Assembly: GCF_016900045.1 (NCBI RefSeq)
Contig: NZ_JACSNP010000001.1
Coordinates: 62,001-126,000 of the forward strand
Length of the DNA stretch: 64,000 nt
Origin: Fusobacterium mortiferum
GTDB lineage: Bacteria > Fusobacteriota > Fusobacteriia > Fusobacteriales > Fusobacteriaceae
Direction: 5' to 3'
The notes beneath the pieces were generated by a model that ran no database searches, was not told the DNA's origin, and worked only from the letters and a program-made list of their open reading frames with translations. Made by a program: the position numbers and the translations under genes. Of this stretch, positions 7,668 through 36,315 are shown in pieces (the stretch's first letter is position 1; each line of letters begins with the position of its first letter).

Positions 7668-8894
7668 TTAATATAGGTAATCAACATGAATCATAACATC
7701 TTTAACATTTTCAAAATCTAGAATTATCCCTTCTCTAATACTGTCTATTAAATGATGAGCTTCATATACTGTCATATCTTTAGGAACTCTAATATGCATA
7801 GAAAGAAATATTTTATCTCCAGATTTTCTCATAAATATATCATGAACATTCTTTATACTATCATTTTCGGCTAGATAATTTTCAAGTTCTTTAATAAACT
7901 CATCATCTTGCTTATCAAGAATAAGGTTGGATGTTTCAAAAATTACTGATATTCCCTCTTTAAAAATTAATAGAGCGACAATTAAACTCACAAGGATATC
8001 AAAGATAGGGGATATCCAAATAGATAACAGTATTCCTATAATAACTCCACCGGAAGAATATACATCACTTTTACTGTCTTTAGCATCAGCTATTAAGGCA
8101 CTATTATCAGTAGCTTGCCCAACTTTTAATTTATATCTATACATAAAAAACTTTACAACCATTGATATAAAAGCCCAAATAATAGTAGTGTATGATGGAG
8201 TAGTGGTATATTCACCTTTAATTAAAAGTTCTACACTACTTTTTCCCAACTCAAAGGCAGTAAGAAGAAGAAAAACTCCTAACATATTTCCAATGATACT
8301 CTCTATTTTTTCATGACCATATGGATGCTCTTCATCAGCTGGTTTATTACTAAAATATATTCCTAATAAGATTGCAAAGGAACTACCAACATCTGCTAAA
8401 GAGTTAATTCCATCAGAAATTAAAGCTCGAGATCCACCATAAATTCCACCTAAAATTTTAATAGTTGCTAAAAATATATTTTGTAAAATAGATGAGATTA
8501 CAACTTTTTTTCCCTCTTTCATTCTCAAGGTTTCTCTCTGAATATTATTTATTTCAAGTGTATCTCCATTTTCTTTGAATCCATTCTTTTTAAAAAATTC
8601 CTGTTTTGAGAGATCTTTACATAAAATCTTTTCCTTTTTCTGCTCCACTCCATGATTGACTAGGAACTTTATAAGCTTCATTCCATAAGATTTATATCTC
8701 ATATCACTTTTTACAAAAATTCTTCTAATTAAGTAGTTCTCTCTACTTTCATTTACTAATATATAACCAATAAGTGTATCTTGAGATTTTATCACAAAAT
8801 ATAGTCCATTTTTATCTTCTATAAACTCATTATCAATATTTGAAAGATTTCCAAAATTATTTTTTAACTCATCTAAATTATAGATTATATACAT
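7668..8894 (-). CDS. GNAT acetyltransferase-cation diffusion facilitator fusion
   Basis: A 408-residue two-part protein. Residues about 1-115 look like a GNAT N-acetyltransferase domain (beta strands with YLIRRIFVKSDMRYKSYG, an acetyl-CoA loop-like stretch, then QEFFKKNGFKENGD). From about 125 it is a cation diffusion facilitator with several membrane helices, the metal-site pattern LISDGINSLADVGSS in helix 2, its partner IADAKDSKSDVYSSG in helix 5, and a cytosolic C-terminal ferredoxin-like domain ending in HVDYLY. CDF proteins export Zn, Mn or Fe in exchange for protons; the metal cannot be told here. The acetyltransferase substrate is unknown. A GGGGGAA ribosome site precedes the ATG. Confidence 0.85.
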   Translation of the reverse strand: MYIIYNLDELKNNFGNLSNIDNEFIEDKNGLYFVIKSQDTLIGYILVNESRENYLIRRIFVKSDMRYKSYGMKLIKFLVNHGVEQKKEKILCKDLSKQEFFKKNGFKENGDTLEINNIQRETLRMKEGKKVVISSILQNIFLATIKILGGIYGGSRALISDGINSLADVGSSFAILLGIYFSNKPADEEHPYGHEKIESIIGNMLGVFLLLTAFELGKSSVELLIKGEYTTTPSYTTIIWAFISMVVKFFMYRYKLKVGQATDNSALIADAKDSKSDVYSSGGVIIGILLSIWISPIFDILVSLIVALLIFKEGISVIFETSNLILDKQDDEFIKELENYLAENDSIKNVHDIFMRKSGDKIFLSMHIRVPKDMTVYEAHHLIDSIREGIILDFENVKDVMIHVDYLY

Positions 8895-25592: not shown

Positions 25593-25654
25593 GACTAGAA
25601 TAACTGAAACTAGCTACTTCCAGAGTAACTACTTAGGTTTATAATTAAAAAACT

Positions 25655-25692
25655 AAGACTTTCTTCAAAAAATTTGAAGAAGGTCTTTTTTT
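25655..25692 (+). terminator. Terminator of guaA
   Basis: AAGACTTTCTTCAAA pairs with TTTGAAGAAGGTCTT and is followed by a run of T. Confidence 0.85.
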
Positions 25693-25769
25693 GTACAGAA
25701 AAATAAATAAAATTGTAAAATTTTTAGAAATCATAAAAACTGTTTCTATTTTTTTTGGGGGGGTAAAAA

Positions 25770-26214
25770 AAGAGCTTAGAAGATGTAGTTATTAATGCTG
25801 TCAGTTTCTATGAGATGAAGAATAAGGAAGCACAGAACTCAGATAAAAATCTTCGTCTGTGTCTCAATAATAATAGTCGTTCTAAAGAACTCCTTGATTA
25901 TTGGAAGAATCCTCATCAAGCATTATTAGGAGGATTTTTATATGCCTTAGATGATTATTATATAATGTATCCTAGATATGGAAAGTGGCTATGGAAGAGG
26001 TGATATAATTTTAGAGCCAAGAAATAAAGCTTGGGCAGGATATATTTTAGAACTAAAAAGAGCTAGTACCAATGATATAGAAAAAGAAGTAGAAAAGGCT
26101 CTACAACAAATAGAAGATAAAAAATATGAAACTCTATTAAAGAAAAATGGAGTAAAGGATATAGTAAAGATTGGATTAGTTTTTGATGGGAAAAAAGCTA
26201 TAGCTTATTATTAA
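25770..26214 (+). pseudogene. C-terminal remnant of a DUF1703-type (AAA + PD-(D/E)XK) protein
   Basis: Two adjacent frames together read like the C-terminus of the fusobacterial/Bacteroidetes family with an AAA-like ATPase domain and a terminal PD-(D/E)XK nuclease domain. The first frame (from 25773, no start) gives SLEDVVINAVSFYEMKNKEA and ends ALLGGFLYALDDYYIMYP before running out at 26003. The second, from 25978, gives ESGYGRGDIILEPRNKAWAG and YILELKRAS, the nuclease motif with D and ExK. A frameshift near 25980 separates them. The ATPase half is missing, and a stop codon plus a T8G7 tract lies just upstream. It is a decayed piece. Confidence 0.65.
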
Positions 26215-26264: not shown

Positions 26265-26423
26265 GCTAAGTATAAGGAAAAAGAGTATAAAGGTGTAAGT
26301 GTATCTATAATGAATAGTAATGATAGAGCAAAAATCTATATACAAAATTAGGAGCTATACATCTTAATGATTATAATAACTTATGAAACAAAGTGTGAAA
26401 AACTGTATTGGAAGTTATTTTAA
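26261..26423 (+). pseudogene. Decayed GNAT acetyltransferase 3' fragment
   Basis: Translation in pieces gives FAKYKEKEYKGVSVSIMNSN, DRAKIYIQN-stop, then after a frameshift KLGAIHLNDYNN, and after another ETKCEKLYWKLF-stop. This follows the C-terminal third of the intact GNAT at 35836-36315 (GYIGISVSVMSANVRARNLY, VKLGAKHLKNYIGF, ETQCEKLYWEL) residue by residue. There are at least two frameshifts and an in-frame stop, and no 5' part remains. The intact relative lies on the other side of the CRISPR-Cas locus in the same orientation. Confidence 0.85.
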
Positions 26424-27206: not shown

Positions 27207-27238
27207 AAAATAGACCTTCTTAGCGAAGGTCTATTTTT
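27207..27238 (+). terminator. Terminator of the 251-aa gene
   Basis: AAAATAGACCTTC pairs with GAAGGTCTATTTT around a 5-base loop, then T. Symmetry makes it usable from both strands. Confidence 0.85.
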
Positions 27239-27654
27239 GCTTTTCGACTAACTTTCATAGTCTCATCAGTAAGTTTAAACTTAGAAGCAGGGGGAGCTTG
27301 AACTAAAATTTGAAGTATTGTAATATATGAAGAATATAATCCTATTTTTTCTATCATTGTCATCACCCTTACTTTTATTATAGTTAATAGTGTTAAAATC
27401 AAGCTTATCATCATCAGAACTAAGACGCTACCCCCAGTTGACAGTTTTCACTGTTTCGACTTTGATTTTTAAATTAATAATATCATTTTTTTTATTAAAT
27501 ATCAAATATATTTTTATAAAATAATTGGACTCTAAATATAATTATCTAATAAAAAAAGAGAAAAAATACATATTAAAAATTAGAATTATTTTAATATTTT
27601 TTAAGAATTACTTCTATAAAAAGTAAAAAAAATGTAGTGTTTTATAATAATTTA
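27239..27654. other. Intergenic region ahead of cas9 with a doubtful minus-strand small ORF
   Basis: On the minus strand an ATG at 27357 behind GGGTGATG opens a peptide starting MIEKIGLYSSYITILQILVQ; an in-frame ATG at 27414 would add a hydrophobic segment (ISLILTLLTIIKV). The frame ends inside the terminator stem at 27220. It could be a small hydrophobic peptide gene or debris. The rest, 27430-27650, is extremely AT-rich with no structure I can name. No anti-repeat to the CRISPR repeat is present here, so the tracrRNA is not upstream of cas9. Confidence 0.3.
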
Positions 27655-27721: not shown

Positions 27722-30700
27722 ATGGGGTATAGATTAGGATTAGATATAGGGATAGCCTCAGTTGGTTGGTGTATTTTAGATGAAAATGATACTATAATGA
27801 AAGCTGGAGTTCGTCTTTTTCCAGAAGGAAAAAGTGATGAAAATCAAAAAAGAAGAGAAAAAAGAGCTTCGAGAAGACTTCTAAGAAGAAGACAATTTAG
27901 AATAGAGAGAGTTCGGGAATTATTATATAGATATGAGATAATTGACAACTATGAGTATGATTTTTATACTAATGAAACTACACCTTATCATATAAGAAAA
28001 AAGGGATTATTTGAAAAGTTAACAAAAAAAGAATTAGCTATAGCATTATTTCATTTAGCTAAAAGAAGAGGAGCAGGGGAGTTTAATATCGAAGTTAAGG
28101 AAGATAGCAAAGAAGAGGAAAGTACAAAGAGTATTTTAGCAGAAAATGAGAAATTATTAAAATTAGGAAAATATATTTGTGAAATTCAATTAGAAAGATT
28201 TGAAGATAAAACTGAGGAAGTAAGGGGAAATAAAAATAATTTTAGAACATCTGATTATATAAAAGAGGCTAGAAAAATTATAGATACCCAAAGAGAATTT
28301 TATAAAAATTTAGATAAATGTTTTGAAGAAGAATATATAGGAATAATAGAAGGAAGAAGAAAATATTTTGAGGGACCAGGGAAAAATAGTCCGTATAGTT
28401 GGAAAAATCAGGAAGAATGGATGGAAGGACTTATGGGAAACTGTACATATTTTCCAGAGGAGTTAAGAATAGTAAAAAACTGTTATACAGCAGAAAAATT
28501 TAATCTTCTAAATGATTTTAATAATTTAAGGATAAAAAGAGCTGAAAATGATAGACTGACTAAAGAGGAAAAGCTTAAATTATTAAATCTTTTTAAAGAA
28601 ACTAAAACTGAGAAAAGCATCACTTTAAAAAAGATAGCTTCTATTTTAAATGTTAATGAGGAAGATATTTCAGGATATAGAATAAAAAAAGACGGAAGTC
28701 CAGAGTTTACTTTTCTAAAAAGTTATATTGAAGTAAATAAAATTTTTAGATGTGATGATGCTGAAATATTGGATAATATTAGTAAAATAGCTACCTATTA
28801 TCAAGATATAGAAACTAGGAAAGAAAAGTATAGGGAAGAATTAAAAGATATATTAGCAATAACAGAAGAAATTATAGAGAATCTTGCACAAAAAATAAAA
28901 TTTACAGGCTCTCATTCTTTATCTAAAAAAGCTATAAAATTGATAGAAGATGATCTATTAGAAACTTCAAAAAATCAAATGGAATTATTTAATGAAAAAG
29001 GTTTAATTCCATATAAAATGGATTTTAAAGATGAAAAAATAAAATATATTCCTAAAGATTATGTAAATAACTGGATTCTTAGTCCAACAGTAAAAAGATC
29101 TATGATTCAAACTATAAATGTAGTTAATGAAATTTTAAAAGAGCATGGAACACCAGAAGAGATAGTTATAGAGTTAGCTAGAGAAAAAAATTCGGATGAT
29201 AAGAGAAAAACTTTGATAGATATTCAGAAAAAAAATGAAAAAGAGAATAATGAAATAAAAGAGTTATTAGAAAATAGAAAATTGGATAAAAGATATTTTG
29301 AGCTTTTAAAATATTGGAAGAGACAAGATGGTATATGTCTGTATTCTGGTAGTGCAATTGGAATAAATGAAATTTTAGAAAATCCATTAGCTTTTGAAAT
29401 AGATCATATTATACCTCGTTCTATCTCTTTTGATGATAGTCAAGATAATAAAGTTTTAGTAAGAAGAATTGAAAATCAAAGAAAGGGACAGAGAAGTCCT
29501 TATGAGTATTTTTCTTCAAAGATGACAAGTAGAAGTTATGAAGAGTTTAAAGCTCAGGTATTAGAAATGTTTAAAAATAAAAAAATATCATTGAAAAAAA
29601 GAGATTTGTTGTTATTAGAAGAAGATATTTCTAAATATTCAAAAAACTTTATAGCTCGTAATTTAGTGGATACAAGATATGCAACTAAAGAATTTATGAG
29701 TTTACTTAGAGTTTTTTTTAGAGATAAGAATAAAAAAGTTAAGATAAAGGCAATAAGAGGAAGTTTTACTAGTCAAATTAGAAAAGAATGGAAAATGACA
29801 AAAATGAGAGAAGTATCTCATAATCACCATGCTCAAGATGCATATATAATTTTAATAGCTGAAAAAACACTAAATAAATTAAAATGGATAAAAAACTATG
29901 ATGAAAATCTTGAAAGTTCCAAAATTTATATCAAGAGAGAAGATATTTTGAGTGATGATGAATTGAAAAGACTTTTTGATTATAAATATTCACTTCCAAT
30001 AAAAAACTATAAAGATTATCTATATTCAAATTTTGTGGATAAGAAACCTAATAGACAACTGAGTGATGAGACTTTATATAGCACTAGAATAATTCAAGAA
30101 AAAGATAAAAAAGGAAAAAATATAGAGAGTGAATATATAATTGGAAAAATTTCAAATATATATGATAAGAAAAGTAATGTTATTAAATATTTTTCTGATG
30201 AAAAAAAACATAGTGAGTTATTGATATATCAACATGATAAACAGACATTTGATAAGATGTTAGAAATTTTTAATGAATATGGAGGAAAAGGAGCTAAAAT
30301 TAATCCATTTACAAAATATTTTGAAGAATTTGGTAAAATTAGGAAATATTCTAAAAAAAATAATGGACCGGAGATTAGCGATTTAAAATATAGAGTATCT
30401 CAATTAGGAAATCATTTGGATATAACTCATAAATATAAAGAGAGTAAGAATAGAGTAGTGATGTTAAGTATTCCAACATATAGGGCTGATATGTATTTTA
30501 ATGGAAAAGAGTATAAATTTATAAGTGTGAGATATTTAATGTTAAGAGATAAGGGAAAATGTTATATTATTGATTCTAAAGAATATAAAAAAGAAAAAAA
30601 TAAGAAAGGAATAGATGAAAATTATGACTTTATATTTTCTCTTTATACAGGAGATATATTGGAAATAGAAAGAAAAGATGGTAGTATAGAAAAAGTTAAA

Positions 30701-31042
30701 TTTAAAGGTGTAAATAATGACGAAAGAAAGTGTATAGAAGTTGATAATATAGAAAGAAATTATGGAAGTTATATTGAACTAATTAGAGATATTGTAGCCA
30801 AAAAAGAAGAAGCAGAGAAAAAAGGAAGTAGATATAATTTTGAAGAGGATTTATCTTTGATTATAGGAACTACACTAACAAAAGATGAAGGAGAGAAAAT
30901 TTTAAAATCAACTCCTATAAGTTCTAAGCAAAAAATTGTTACAATAGGTGGTGATATTAAAAAATTAAGAAAAATATATACGAATATTTTGGGAAAAGAG
31001 TATGATGGTAAGGAAAATTTTGAAGAAACTATAAAAAAATAG
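27722..31042 (+). CDS. cas9: Compact Cas9 endonuclease, type II-A
   Basis: RNA-guided nuclease of 1106 residues. Visible in order: RuvC-I LGLDIGIASVGW (Asp8); arginine-rich bridge helix RREKRASRRLLRRRQFRIER; a helical recognition lobe; RuvC-II EEIVIELAREKN (Glu484); HNH FEIDHIIPRSISFDDSQDNK with Asp561, His562, Asn576 and then Asn585; RuvC-III SHNHHAQDAYIIL with His703 and Asp706; and a lysine-rich C-terminal PAM-interacting region. Every catalytic position is present, so both strands should be cut. Its size places it with the short Cas9s (S. aureus, S. thermophilus CRISPR1). The PAM cannot be read from sequence. The tracrRNA promoter begins at the stop codon. Confidence 0.97.
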   Translation: MGYRLGLDIGIASVGWCILDENDTIMKAGVRLFPEGKSDENQKRREKRASRRLLRRRQFRIERVRELLYRYEIIDNYEYDFYTNETTPYHIRKKGLFEKLTKKELAIALFHLAKRRGAGEFNIEVKEDSKEEESTKSILAENEKLLKLGKYICEIQLERFEDKTEEVRGNKNNFRTSDYIKEARKIIDTQREFYKNLDKCFEEEYIGIIEGRRKYFEGPGKNSPYSWKNQEEWMEGLMGNCTYFPEELRIVKNCYTAEKFNLLNDFNNLRIKRAENDRLTKEEKLKLLNLFKETKTEKSITLKKIASILNVNEEDISGYRIKKDGSPEFTFLKSYIEVNKIFRCDDAEILDNISKIATYYQDIETRKEKYREELKDILAITEEIIENLAQKIKFTGSHSLSKKAIKLIEDDLLETSKNQMELFNEKGLIPYKMDFKDEKIKYIPKDYVNNWILSPTVKRSMIQTINVVNEILKEHGTPEEIVIELAREKNSDDKRKTLIDIQKKNEKENNEIKELLENRKLDKRYFELLKYWKRQDGICLYSGSAIGINEILENPLAFEIDHIIPRSISFDDSQDNKVLVRRIENQRKGQRSPYEYFSSKMTSRSYEEFKAQVLEMFKNKKISLKKRDLLLLEEDISKYSKNFIARNLVDTRYATKEFMSLLRVFFRDKNKKVKIKAIRGSFTSQIRKEWKMTKMREVSHNHHAQDAYIILIAEKTLNKLKWIKNYDENLESSKIYIKREDILSDDELKRLFDYKYSLPIKNYKDYLYSNFVDKKPNRQLSDETLYSTRIIQEKDKKGKNIESEYIIGKISNIYDKKSNVIKYFSDEKKHSELLIYQHDKQTFDKMLEIFNEYGGKGAKINPFTKYFEEFGKIRKYSKKNNGPEISDLKYRVSQLGNHLDITHKYKESKNRVVMLSIPTYRADMYFNGKEYKFISVRYLMLRDKGKCYIIDSKEYKKEKNKKGIDENYDFIFSLYTGDILEIERKDGSIEKVKFKGVNNDERKCIEVDNIERNYGSYIELIRDIVAKKEEAEKKGSRYNFEEDLSLIIGTTLTKDEGEKILKSTPISSKQKIVTIGGDIKKLRKIYTNILGKEYDGKENFEETIKK

Positions 31043-31071
31043 TTGAAACTTAAAAGAAAAAGTGCTATACT
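31043..31071 (+). promoter_or_regulatory. Promoter of the tracrRNA
   Basis: TTGAAA, 17-bp spacer and TATACT, starting immediately at the end of cas9. Transcription would begin near 31078, just ahead of the tracrRNA. Confidence 0.75.
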
Positions 31072-31077
31072 TAAGAT

Positions 31078-31177
31078 GACAAAGGACGCTTTGTCATCTT
31101 ACTTAAGTTTTACAGGACCTACTAAAATAAGGTTTTGTACCGGAATCATCCCTCTTCGGAGGGATTTTTCTTTTTTT
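31078..31177 (+). ncRNA. tracrRNA
   Basis: The anti-repeat at about 31106-31138 (ATCTTACTTAAG, then TTTTACAGGACCTACTAAAAT) pairs with the CRISPR repeat: an upper stem of 19 bp (with one G-U), a bulge (repeat CCU against tracr GGACC) and a 9-bp lower stem with GUUUUAGUA. It is followed by a nexus-like AAGGTTTTGTACCGG and a terminal hairpin ATCCCTC-TTCG-GAGGGAT with TTTTC and T7. The 5' part, AAGATGACAAAG-GACG-CTTTGTCATCTT, forms a perfect 12-bp hairpin that covers the start of the anti-repeat. The position between cas9 and cas1 is as in S. thermophilus CRISPR1. Confidence 0.93.
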
Positions 31178-31194
31178 GTAAAAAAGGTAGAGTT

Positions 31195-32100
31195 ATGAGT
31201 TGGAGAACTATATATATAAGTGAAAGTGAGAGATTAGGATTATATCTTGATAATTTATTAATAATAAAAAACGGAGAGGAATATAAAATTCCACTTCGAG
31301 ATATAGGGAGTATAATAGTAGAAGATAACAGGACAGTAATAACACTAAAACTTATAAATAAAATTTTAGAATATAATATTTTGTTAGTTTTTTGTGATGA
31401 TAAATATAATCCGATTGGAATTCTAAATTCAACAACAGGATATTTTAGACAAAGTAAATTAGTTAATCAGCAAATAAATTGGGATAAAAATTTAAAAGAT
31501 ATTTTATGGAAAGAGATAGTAAAAATAAAATTAGAAAATCAAAAATTTGTACTTAAGAAACTAAAGAAAGATGAAGAGGTAGTAAAAAATATTGAGAAAT
31601 ATATTCAAGAGGTTGAAAGTGGAGATAGTACAAATAGAGAGGGATTGGGAGCAAAGATATATTTTAAAGAGCTATATGGAGCAACATTTATAAGAGGAGA
31701 TAAAGATATTATTAATAGTGCTTTAAATTATGGTTATGCAATAATTCATAGTAAAATAGCTAGAGTGATAGCTGGAAAAGGATTGCTTACATATTTGGGA
31801 ATTCATCATAAAAGTGAATATAATCAATTTAATTTAGCAAGTGATATAATTGAAGTATATCGACCATTAGTTGATTATTTTGTATATATGTACATGAAAC
31901 ATGCTTTGTATTTTTCAAAAGAGGATAGAATAGAATTAATTAATTTGTTAAATGCTAAGGTCTGTCAAGGAAAATATATGGAGAGTGTGAGTAACTCAAT
32001 AGAAAAATATATAGATATGATTATTGAGTATTTTGAAACAGGAGTATTTAATATTGAAAAAATTCCTAGTATGAGTAAATTTGAATTTTATGAGTTATAA
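31195..32100 (+). CDS. cas1: CRISPR integrase Cas1 (type II)
   Basis: Metal-dependent integrase that with Cas2 inserts new spacers. The 301 residues show the N-terminal beta domain (SWRTIYISESERLGLYLDN) and the helical catalytic domain. Conserved acidic/histidine positions appear in REGLGAKIYFKELYG (glutamate), GIHHKSEYNQFNLASD (histidine) and EVYRPLVDYFV (acidic). The start is the ATG at 31195 behind AAAGGTAGAG; an in-frame start further up would lie inside the tracrRNA terminator. It overlaps cas2 by 11 bp. Confidence 0.93.
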   Translation: MSWRTIYISESERLGLYLDNLLIIKNGEEYKIPLRDIGSIIVEDNRTVITLKLINKILEYNILLVFCDDKYNPIGILNSTTGYFRQSKLVNQQINWDKNLKDILWKEIVKIKLENQKFVLKKLKKDEEVVKNIEKYIQEVESGDSTNREGLGAKIYFKELYGATFIRGDKDIINSALNYGYAIIHSKIARVIAGKGLLTYLGIHHKSEYNQFNLASDIIEVYRPLVDYFVYMYMKHALYFSKEDRIELINLLNAKVCQGKYMESVSNSIEKYIDMIIEYFETGVFNIEKIPSMSKFEFYEL

Positions 32101-32413
32101 ATTTATGAGATTAATTATAATGTTTGATTTACCTATGTCTACTAAATCAGAGCAAAGAGAGTATAGGGAATTCAGAGAATTTTTATTAGAAAATGGATTT
32201 TTAATGTTACAATACTCAGTATATACAAGAATATGTACAAATCAAACTATGGCCAATAATTATATCAAAAAAATAGAAAAAGTTATTCCAAGTGATGGAG
32301 CAATAAGAGGTCTAATTATAACAGAGAAGCAATATGAGAAAATGAAGATATTTTTGGGTAAAAAAAGCAAGATGGAAAGTATAATTACAGATAAAAAATT
32401 AATAGTTTTTTAA
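32090..32413 (+). CDS. cas2: CRISPR adaptation protein Cas2
   Basis: Small ferredoxin-fold protein (107 residues) that bridges Cas1 dimers in the adaptation complex. The start MSYKFMRLIIMFDLPMSTKS is the standard type II-A Cas2 N-terminus, with the conserved aspartate in MFDLP and the following REFLLENGFLMLQYSVYTRI. I chose the ATG at 32090; the in-frame TTG at 32081 would add three residues only. It overlaps the cas1 end by 11 bp and is followed after 11 bp by csn2. Confidence 0.94.
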   Translation: MSYKFMRLIIMFDLPMSTKSEQREYREFREFLLENGFLMLQYSVYTRICTNQTMANNYIKKIEKVIPSDGAIRGLIITEKQYEKMKIFLGKKSKMESIITDKKLIVF

Positions 32414-32424
32414 GAGGTGATATT

Positions 32425-33471
32425 ATGTTAGAAATACAAAACTATAAAAGTATCAACTCCGTACTACTAAAAAATAGAAATTATACAACTTTGATAGGGG
32501 ATGATGAAATACTTTTACAAAATATTTGTGAAAGCATCAATAATTATTACAACAAAAAAATAGAAAAATTAAGGGAAGAAAAGTTAGTTATTTGTAACTT
32601 TTTTTCTAAAACAAAAGAGTCGATATCTTCTAAAAATTGTATTTATATAGCTGATGAAAATTTAGATAGTGAATTAGGGTTAGGAGCAAAAACTGAATTA
32701 ACCTCTAAACTCACAAAGTTATTTAAAGAAAAAATGCCAATAGAACCTATTTTAGTGACTATAAATTCTCTTATAGAGGATTTAGAGTTAGAAGAAAGTA
32801 CTATAGAAATGTCAGATAATATATCAAAATATAGTAAACATAAGATAAAATTTTCTTTTGAAAAAATAGCTCCCTCAGATTTTATTAAGAAGATAAGAAT
32901 AGATTTTGAAGAGGATGAAATAATTTTAAAAGAAATAGAAAAACTAAAATTATATTTAGGAATTATGGACAAAAATGAACTAAATAAGGAAAATATCTAT
33001 ATATTTTTATTTCCTGAAAGGAAAATACCTCCTCAAGATATAAGAGAATTAAAAAAATTTTTATTGAAGTTGGCAGAAAAAAATCAAGTTATCGTTGCGA
33101 CTTTTTCTAAGTATTTACTTAACTTTTCAGAACTAGATAGTATAAATTTATATTTAAATAACAAGTTAAAAAATTTAGATTTTGAAGAAGAAATTATAAA
33201 AAAAGTTGAAGAAGAATATCCCATTTTAAAAAATAGCAATGAGATAAGAGAAAAATTAAAATATATATTACAAAAATATTTATTTGAAATATTAGTTTGT
33301 AATAAAGTTTCAAATAAAATTTTTTCAGAGAGTGAAAATATTTTTATTCCAGATTATGAGTCTCTTTTCTTATTTCTAATCTACTTAAAATTATCAAATA
33401 TACCCTATATTAAAGATATAAATTTTGATAAAACTTCTCCTTTCTCAAATTATATAGAAAAAAGACTTTAA
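32425..33471 (+). CDS. csn2: Csn2, long form (type II-A adaptation protein)
   Basis: A 348-residue protein in the position of csn2, the type II-A marker; Csn2 forms a ring that slides on DNA ends during spacer acquisition. The first 230 residues follow the Csn2 plan: an N-terminal strand pair, YTTLIGDDEILLQNICESIN, then ELGLGAKTELTSKLTKLFKE, and the ATPase-like core with KENIYIFLFPERKIPPQDIR and LAEKNQVIVATFSKYLL. It lacks a P-loop, as Csn2 does. The remaining 110 residues are a helical extension absent from the short (about 220 aa) S. pyogenes type. AGAGGTGA precedes the ATG. The assignment rests on position, fold-like pattern and length. Confidence 0.8.
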   Translation: MLEIQNYKSINSVLLKNRNYTTLIGDDEILLQNICESINNYYNKKIEKLREEKLVICNFFSKTKESISSKNCIYIADENLDSELGLGAKTELTSKLTKLFKEKMPIEPILVTINSLIEDLELEESTIEMSDNISKYSKHKIKFSFEKIAPSDFIKKIRIDFEEDEIILKEIEKLKLYLGIMDKNELNKENIYIFLFPERKIPPQDIRELKKFLLKLAEKNQVIVATFSKYLLNFSELDSINLYLNNKLKNLDFEEEIIKKVEEEYPILKNSNEIREKLKYILQKYLFEILVCNKVSNKIFSESENIFIPDYESLFLFLIYLKLSNIPYIKDINFDKTSPFSNYIEKRL

Positions 33472-33504
33472 AAAAGACATCAAATATGTTAGAATTAATT
33501 TGAG
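33467..33504 (+). promoter_or_regulatory. CRISPR leader: promoter and ATTTGAG anchor
   Basis: Only 33 bp separate csn2 from the first repeat. TTTAAA (overlapping the csn2 stop), a 17-bp spacer and TAGAAT could drive the array. The last seven bases, ATTTGAG at 33498-33504, are identical to the leader-anchoring sequence that directs spacer insertion in type II-A systems. They fix the leader end and array polarity. Confidence 0.75.
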
Positions 33505-34794
33505 GTTTTAGTACCTTGTAAAATTTAAGTAAGATAAAAGACAAATCCCCGAAAACACAAACGAGGAAAAGTTTTAGTACCTTGTAAAATTTAAGTAAGA
33601 TAAAAGGTTAGACCATACTGAGTTTCAAAAGTTTATGTTTTAGTACCTTGTAAAATTTAAGTAAGATAAAAGACAACATAATACTAAAAGAAAAAAAGAC
33701 AGGTTTTAGTACCTTGTAAAATTTAAGTAAGATAAAAGGGTGTTTGGATATACTCCTAGATATCGTGAGTTTTAGTACCTTGTAAAATTTAAGTAAGATA
33801 AAAGTGTTTATCCTGAAAGTGCTCCTAGTAATTGGTTTTAGTACCTTGTAAAATTTAAGTAAGATAAAAGTTCTAGTGTCTTTAACTCCTAATTCCTCAC
33901 GTTTTAGTACCTTGTAAAATTTAAGTAAGATAAAAGAGGTGTCAATACAAAAGGTATATATTTTAGGTTTTAGTACCTTGTAAAATTTAAGTAAGATAAA
34001 AGGATATTCTCTTTTAATTCTACAAATATCCTGTTTTAGTACCTTGTAAAATTTAAGTAAGATAAAAGTTGCTTCTCATCATTGTGATATGGTTGATTGT
34101 TTTAGTACCTTGTAAAATTTAAGTAAGATAAAAGTTTTTTAAACCATCTACTGGAAAATTTACAGTTTTAGTACCTTGTAAAATTTAAGTAAGATAAAAG
34201 TTACAAAACAGGTAATAGTTTTGAATACTCGTTTTAGTACCTTGTAAAATTTAAGTAAGATAAAAGCATCTGGAAATTCTTCTTTTCTATGTTCTGGTTT
34301 TAGTACCTTGTAAAATTTAAGTAAGATAAAAGAAGATAATTTTCTCCCTCACGAGCATATTTGTTTTAGTACCTTGTAAAATTTAAGTAAGATAAAAGTA
34401 TGTGGGAAGATGTCACAATAAATTCAGTGTTTTAGTACCTTGTAAAATTTAAGTAAGATAAAAGATCTTTGAACTCTCTACCTTTTTTAGATAGGTTTTA
34501 GTACCTTGTAAAATTTAAGTAAGATAAAAGCTAGTAGTTATCATCATTGTAATGTTGTACGTTTTAGTACCTTGTAAAATTTAAGTAAGATAAAAGCAAT
34601 TAATGACGGAGCTATGCTTGGATACCGTTTTAGTACCTTGTAAAATTTAAGTAAGATAAAAGCTGTCTGCTATTGTGTTGTTGCCAAAATCAGTTTTAGT
34701 ACCTTGTAAAATTTAAGTAAGATAAAAGGTAACAAAAACTAAAGGAGAGCATCAATAGGTTTTAGTACCTTGTAAAATTTAAGTAAGATAAAAG
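33505..34794 (+). CRISPR. CRISPR array, 20 repeats and 19 spacers
   Basis: The 36-bp repeat begins GTTTTAGTACCTTG and ends AAGTAAGATAAAAG. Repeat starts fall at 33505 and every 66 bp to 34759, so all 19 spacers are exactly 30 bp. All 20 repeats appear identical, including the last, which is often degenerate at the leader-distal end. Transcription is on the plus strand (leader at csn2), giving crRNAs of the form spacer then GUUUUAG repeat, which pairs with the tracrRNA. Spacers 9 (from 34069) and 16 (from 34531) resemble each other. No spacer obviously matches elsewhere in the window. Confidence 0.99.
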
Positions 34795-35835: not shown

Positions 35836-36315
35836 ATGGAAATAAGATTACTTGTAAAAGAAGATATCAATGAGATGGTAAAACTATATGTAAAAAGTTG
35901 GAGGGCAACATATAAAGGGATAATACCAGATAAAATTTTAGATACAATAACAGAGGAAAAATTTAATAAAATTTGGAGTGAATATATAACAAAAGAGAAA
36001 AATGGTATATTTGGAGCTTTTGAAGATGAAAATTTTTTAGGTTTTGGAGCTTTTACTCCAGATGAAGATATGGAGAACGTACTCTATTTAGATTCGTTAC
36101 ATATAAAGGATGAATACAAAGGTAGAGGAGTTGGAACAACAATAATTTCAACTTTAAAGAGATATGCTAAACAAGAGGGATATATAGGAATAAGTGTATC
36201 TGTTATGAGTGCTAATGTAAGAGCTAGAAATTTATATGTTAAATTAGGAGCTAAACACCTAAAAAATTATATAGGTTTTGAAACTCAATGTGAAAAATTG
36301 TATTGGGAACTGTAA
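35836..36315 (+). CDS. GNAT-family N-acetyltransferase
   Basis: Acetyl-CoA-dependent acetyltransferase of 159 residues, complete over the GNAT fold: EIRLLVKEDINEMVKLYVKS at the start, FLGFGAFTPDEDMENVLYLD, the acetyl-CoA loop DEYKGRGVGTTIISTLKRYA and VMSANVRARNLYVKLGAKHL. It resembles the family with the KSWRATYKGIIPD signature. The substrate is unknown. A degraded copy of its 3' third lies at 26261-26423, so two related genes once flanked the CRISPR-Cas segment. Bounded by its own promoter and terminator. Confidence 0.9.
   Translation: MEIRLLVKEDINEMVKLYVKSWRATYKGIIPDKILDTITEEKFNKIWSEYITKEKNGIFGAFEDENFLGFGAFTPDEDMENVLYLDSLHIKDEYKGRGVGTTIISTLKRYAKQEGYIGISVSVMSANVRARNLYVKLGAKHLKNYIGFETQCEKLYWEL

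What the first reader, a model, noticed from the sequence alone, without database searches (positions are those of the whole stretch)
27722..34794. Complete compact type II-A CRISPR-Cas system with a long Csn2
Seen: a Cas9 of only 1106 residues with all RuvC and HNH catalytic residues, tracrRNA, cas1, cas2, a 348-aa csn2-like gene and a 20-repeat array. Known: a small Cas9, long Csn2 and tracrRNA downstream of cas9 also occur together in S. thermophilus CRISPR1, whereas compact Cas9 is otherwise mostly II-C. Inference: this is a fusobacterial member of that branch, probably active, with an unread PAM and guide scaffold.
Basis: partly seen in the sequence, partly recalled or inferred. Interest (0 to 1): 0.75.

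Follow-up and report, generated by a model that had tools for sequence, protein, structure and literature searches.

The report
Compact SaCas9-type II-A CRISPR-Cas locus
This is a complete and apparently working bacterial immune system built around a small Cas9 of the Staphylococcus aureus Cas9 kind; its stored memories match phages and mobile DNA next to the motif NNAAAG, so it is a good new member of a known family rather than a new kind of system.

Summary
Window 27722-34794 holds cas9 (1106 aa), tracrRNA, cas1, cas2, a 348-aa csn2 and an array of 20 identical 36-nt repeats with nineteen 30-nt spacers. The II-A assignment passes every test I could run. Cas9 and Cas1 both fall on the Csn2-bearing II-A side of their trees, not in II-C. 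The 348-aa protein, invisible to Pfam and NCBIfam, matches PADLOC Csn2 (E=2e-22), and its AlphaFold model (pLDDT 86) resembles S. thermophilus long Csn2 (3zth, TM 0.60/0.60). The leader ends ATTTGAG, a II-A adaptation motif. One correction: the nearest characterised Cas9 is SaCas9 (48% identity), not S. thermophilus CRISPR1 Cas9 (41%). I also read the PAM: eight spacers have protospacers with at most 4 mismatches, and six are flanked by exactly NNAAAG (background 1%; p about 4e-11). SaCas9 Arg1015, which reads G3, is Gln1070 here, as in St1Cas9, which fits A at PAM position 3. NNAAAG is already known for SgoCas9, so the motif is not new; on the SaCas9 branch it seems to be. Ordinary kind, well-supported member. 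A tandem hammerhead-ribozyme candidate lies divergently upstream of cas9.

The parts
27722..31042 (+). cas9, 1106 aa, compact SaCas9/St1Cas9-type effector
   Evidence: TIGR01865 704 bits; SaCas9 795 bits and St1Cas9 536 bits among PDB sequences; catalytic residues; tree
31043..31071 (+). tracrRNA promoter TTGAAA-17-TATACT directly after the cas9 stop
   Evidence: same -35 hexamer, 17-nt spacing and -10 box in L032 and L034
31078..31178 (+). tracrRNA: 5' hairpin 31078-31095, anti-repeat from 31096, short stem-loop, terminator hairpin
   Evidence: sequence; hybrid fold -46.9 kcal/mol, z -8.4; conserved in L032 and L034
31195..32100 (+). cas1, 301 aa, type II
   Evidence: TIGR03639 296 bits; PADLOC Cas1_II; tree
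32090..32413 (+). cas2, 107 aa, type II
   Evidence: TIGR01573; PADLOC Cas2_II
32425..33471 (+). csn2, 348 aa, long form
   Evidence: PADLOC Csn2 PDLC02122 E=2.1e-22; AlphaFold pLDDT 85.9; Foldseek 3zth TM 0.60/0.60, 3v7f, 6qxf
33498..33504 (+). leader-anchoring sequence ATTTGAG at the leader end
   Evidence: same in L032 and L034; Group 1 II-A motif in PMC5382924
33505..34794 (+). CRISPR array, 20 identical 36-nt repeats, 19 spacers of 30 nt

Best explanation
A complete type II-A CRISPR-Cas locus of the compact-Cas9, long-Csn2 branch, whose Cas9 belongs to the SaCas9 lineage. Cas1-Cas2-Csn2, with Cas9 choosing sites by PAM, insert 30-nt pieces of invading DNA at the ATTTGAG leader end. The array transcript pairs with the tracrRNA, whose promoter lies just after cas9. 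The processed duplex guides Cas9 to cut DNA next to a 3' NNAAAG PAM, with position 3 (A) probably contacted by Gln1070, the counterpart of SaCas9 Arg1015. Shown here by computation: gene content, phylogeny, Csn2 fold, guide RNA architecture and PAM from protospacers. Inferred: expression, cutting, spacer uptake and the base-to-residue assignment.
For: Gene content and coordinates. Family hits. Cas9 tree of 63 rows: a 29-row clade (SH-aLRT 99) holds every long-csn2 locus plus SaCas9 and St1Cas9; the window sits in a 9-row clade (100) with SaCas9, three Bacillaceae and the other close members from its own phylum; the 29 csn2-less rows lie outside. The Cas1 tree separates csn2-bearing from csn2-less loci at support 97. 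Csn2 model and fold search. ATTTGAG leader end. tracrRNA promoter and fold. Eight spacers with protospacers at up to 4 mismatches; six have NNAAAG exactly (background 1.05%, binomial p 4e-11); best four-position information content 5.8 bits, reached by 0 of 20000 random draws, maximum 4.36. Targets include a gokushovirus VP4 and VP1, an inovirus replication gene, a prophage integrase and other genes of sister species. SaCas9 R1015, St1 Q1084 and window Q1070 fall at one site; R1015 reads G3 (PMC13148819, PMC8811835).
Against: No expression, cleavage or adaptation data. The csn2 protein hits no Pfam or NCBIfam model. The protospacers are not all independent: pairs s2/s4, s16/s17 and s6/s9 lie in the same element or region, and the flanks of s9 and s16 are coding sequence of similar small genes. 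The other two intact relatives gave too few protospacers to test their PAM. In the Cas1 tree the long-csn2 loci are not a clade apart from the short-csn2 ones.
Confidence: 0.94

Rival explanations
1. A type II-C system with compact Cas9 and an unrelated fourth gene.
For: Compact Cas9s without csn2 do occur in the same phylum (L029, L030, L031).
Against: Those lie in a separate clade with Neisseria-type II-C Cas9s; the Cas1 tree agrees; the fourth gene is Csn2 by profile and fold; ATTTGAG leader end.
Confidence: 0.01
2. A decayed or inactive II-A locus.
For: No activity data; 11 of 19 spacers have no good match. The other held genome of the same species has no cas9 hit, though its contigs break at both flanks.
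Against: All reading frames intact, all 20 repeats identical, catalytic residues present, and the leader-proximal spacer s1 matches another genome of the same species with one mismatch and a good PAM.
Confidence: 0.05

Closest known systems
Staphylococcus aureus Cas9 (SaCas9), type II-A, PDB 7enr/5axw
   Same: 48% identity over 909 aligned residues, best PDB hit, same supported clade, WED and PI domains.
   Different: PAM NNAAAG-like instead of NNGRRT; Arg1015 replaced by Gln1070, and the Arg991 site by Cys1004.
Streptococcus thermophilus CRISPR1 (St1Cas9; long Csn2 Stu0660, PDB 3zth)
   Same: Compact Cas9, long Csn2 with matching fold, ATTTGAG leader end, Gln at the PAM position-3 site (Q1084).
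   Different: 41% identity, different sub-branch; St1 PAM is NNAGAAW (own knowledge).
Streptococcus gordonii SgoCas9
   Same: NNAAAG PAM, compact Cas9 (PMC8921874).
   Different: A streptococcal Cas9, presumably of the St1 branch; its sequence was not compared here.
Bacillaceae loci L043, L044, L065 (Terrihalobacillus, Salsuginibacillus, Salisediminibacterium)
   Same: Same order cas9-cas1-cas2-long csn2 and same Cas9 clade.
   Different: Arg at the R1015 site, hence probably a G3 PAM.

Membership tests
CRISPR-Cas type II-A | cas9, cas1, cas2 and csn2 in one operon | tested here: met
CRISPR-Cas type II-A | Csn2 fold of the fourth protein | tested here: met
   AlphaFold pLDDT 85.9; 3zth TM 0.60/0.60, 3v7f, 6qxf
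CRISPR-Cas type II-A | Cas9 and Cas1 cluster with II-A, not II-C | tested here: met
CRISPR-Cas type II-A | tracrRNA complementary to the repeat | tested here: met
CRISPR-Cas type II-A | ATTTGAG, CTRCGAG or CG leader end | tested here: met
   ATTTGAG; motif classes from PMC5382924
CRISPR-Cas type II-A | RNA-guided DNA cleavage and spacer acquisition | not testable with these tools
   needs a laboratory assay
SaCas9 lineage of compact II-A Cas9 | clade with SaCas9 | tested here: met
   9-row clade, SH-aLRT 100
SaCas9 lineage of compact II-A Cas9 | G at PAM position 3 with Arg1015 (shared by the SaCas9 orthologs of PMC8811835; typical rather than defining) | tested here: not met
   A at position 3 in 8 of 8 protospacers; Gln1070
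CRISPR-Cas type II-C | no csn2; Cas9 and Cas1 in the II-C clade | tested here: not met

The most novel reading that the evidence does not exclude
A sub-branch of the SaCas9 lineage, found in the window's own phylum, in which the Arg that reads G at PAM position 3 has become Gln, giving an A-rich NNAAAG(W) PAM; it would have reached on its own the PAM known from the streptococcal SgoCas9.
Probability: 0.7. Interest if true: 0.45.

Novelty: new member of a known kind. Interest (0 to 1): 0.35.

Why it matters
It extends the compact SaCas9-type II-A branch to a phylum for which I found no characterised member, with a readable guide scaffold and an inferred A-rich PAM that suits AT-rich targets. 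The Arg-to-Gln change against a known structural frame gives a direct test of how this Cas9 branch switches PAM. It also points to microviruses, an inovirus and prophages as likely natural invaders of the host.

Tried and rejected
II-C membership was tested and rejected. Scans of IMG/VR for spacer 4 and for four targeted phage proteins found nothing, and plasmids gave no spacer match. Spacers of the relatives L032 and L034 gave too few good protospacers to infer their PAM. A search for a tracr-L-like partial match between the tracrRNA and the cas9 promoter printed nothing. Whether the locus is truly absent from the same-species genome G003 cannot be settled: it has no cas9 hit, but its contigs end at both flanks. 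phmmer found no PDB relative of Csn2 by sequence; the fold search did. Literature searches combining Fusobacterium with Cas9 terms showed, by title and abstract, no paper describing such a Cas9; the library holds open-licence papers only. The hammerhead pair was sought in phages, plasmids and IMG/VR without success.

Full report
What is there. Window 27722-34794 holds, all on the + strand, cas9 (1106 aa), a tracrRNA, cas1 (301 aa), cas2 (107 aa), csn2 (348 aa) and a CRISPR array. The 20 repeats (GTTTTAGTACCTTGTAAAATTTAAGTAAGATAAAAG) are identical and the 19 spacers are all 30 nt. It is the only Cas9 and the only Cas1 locus found in this genome.

Which system. NCBIfam calls Cas9 (704 bits), type II Cas1 (296 bits) and Cas2. 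The best solved-structure relative of Cas9 is SaCas9 (795 bits), then St1Cas9 (536 bits). I fetched 80 named Cas9 loci and the Cas9 loci among 98 genomes of the window's phylum, labelled them by the gene after cas2, and built trees. In the Cas9 tree all long-csn2 loci, with SaCas9 and St1Cas9, form one clade (SH-aLRT 99). The window sits in a 9-row clade (100) with SaCas9, three Bacillaceae and the close compact Cas9s of its phylum (L032, L033, L034, L042). The csn2-less loci, including Neisseria, lie on the other side, and long Cas9s with short csn2 form a third group. Cas1 separates csn2-bearing from csn2-less loci at support 97. Compact Cas9s of the II-C kind do occur in the same phylum (L029-L031), so small size alone would not have decided the question.

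Csn2. Pfam and NCBIfam are silent, but PADLOC's Csn2 model matches nearly the whole protein (E=2.1e-22). The AlphaFold model from 22 long Csn2 sequences has mean pLDDT 85.9. Foldseek ranks S. thermophilus Stu0660 (3zth) second by E-value with the best mutual TM-score (0.60/0.60), and S. pyogenes Csn2 entries follow. The first-ranked OLD nuclease and the Gabija matches reflect, I infer, a shared ABC-ATPase-like core.

Adaptation signal and guide. The leader ends ATTTGAG immediately before repeat 1 in the window and in both intact relatives. [quoted passage not shown] thermophilus CRISPR1 (PMC5382924). The tracrRNA starts from TTGAAA-17-TATACT directly after cas9, an arrangement repeated in both relatives. 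It has a conserved 5' hairpin, an anti-repeat and a terminator hairpin. Joined to the repeat it folds at -46.9 kcal/mol against -19.7 for shuffles.

PAM. Every window-spacer protospacer with at most 4 mismatches in the fetched loci was kept, whatever its flank. The 3' flanks of the best one per spacer are s1 ATAAAGAA, s2 GAAAAGAT, s4 GGAAAGAG, s5 GAAAGAGA, s6 AAAGAGTA, s9 AAAAAGTA, s16 AGAAAGTA and s17 ATAAAGAC. Position 3 is A in all eight; NNAAAG is exact in six, the exceptions being s5 and s6. The background frequency of NNAAAG in the target loci is 1.05%, binomial p about 4e-11, and 0 of 20000 random draws reached the observed information content. Of 19 weaker matches used as a control, 2 show NNAAAG. 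Targets are a gokushovirus (VP4, VP1), an inovirus replication gene, a prophage integrase and a small gene beside it, and other genes in sister species. Some pairs share an element, so the eight are not fully independent.

Reading the PAM. SaCas9 Arg1015 contacts the G at PAM position 3 (PMC13148819, PMC8811835). St1Cas9 Q1084 and window Q1070 lie at the same distance before the conserved TD(I/V)LG motif; both intact relatives also have Gln, whereas the three Bacillaceae of the clade have Arg. The printed PDB alignment of SaCas9 stops before Arg1015, so its placement rests on my knowledge of the SaCas9 C-terminus. NNAAAG is already reported for S. gordonii SgoCas9 (PMC8921874), so the motif itself is not new.

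Verdict. A real, complete, probably active II-A system: a new member of a known kind, with a PAM unusual for its SaCas9 lineage. Activity, spacer uptake and the residue assignment are inference.

Beside the finding. Divergently upstream of cas9 lies a tandem pair of hammerhead-ribozyme candidates. The same pair, in the same order and at similar spacing, occurs in one other genome of the phylum, downstream of an AbiP2-type reverse transcriptase. Tandem bacterial hammerheads flanking genes are known (PMC3088659). All the Rfam scores are below the gathering thresholds, but conservation of both cores between two genera argues that they are real.

Noticed in passing
window 27236-27461, - strand: Tandem hammerhead-ribozyme candidates: Hammerhead_II at 27461-27398 (31.5 bits) and Hammerhead_3 at 27291-27236 (40.6 bits), both below gathering scores. 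Read by eye, they have a TTGATA-17-TATTAT promoter (27505-27477) and a terminator, and the two cuts would release about 156 nt (27439-27284) that includes a possible small-peptide start at 27357.
   Followed up: partly
L175 1363-1555 (same place in L187, about 8617-8809; genome G014): The same Hammerhead_II then Hammerhead_3 pair with conserved cores in another genus, downstream of an AbiP2-type reverse transcriptase (PADLOC E=4e-161). Only these 2 of 98 genomes of the phylum have a Hammerhead_3 hit.
   Followed up: partly
L153 7928; L154 11992; L156 8352; L157 7067; L158 3411, 3912, 14870: Spacers 9 and 16 match two families of short hydrophobic-peptide genes (about 29-37 aa) in multi-copy, mostly intergenic modules with a similar hairpin upstream; they look like type I toxin genes. 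Rfam has no match there.
   Followed up: no
window 25622-25706: A stretch of about 85 nt, over 90% identical to many copies near contig ends of the same-species genome G003: a dispersed repeat near the CRISPR flank.
   Followed up: no
window 25815-26214: A PD-(D/E)XK nuclease-like gene (PF08011 in 25978-26214) that seems to be split over two short overlapping frames, apparently a remnant.
   Followed up: no
window 26273-26411 and 36168-36306: Stretches 9.9 kb apart repeated at 71-81% identity; the right copy lies in an acetyltransferase-like gene (35836-36315), the left seems to be a fragment of a paralogue on the other side of the CRISPR locus.
   Followed up: no
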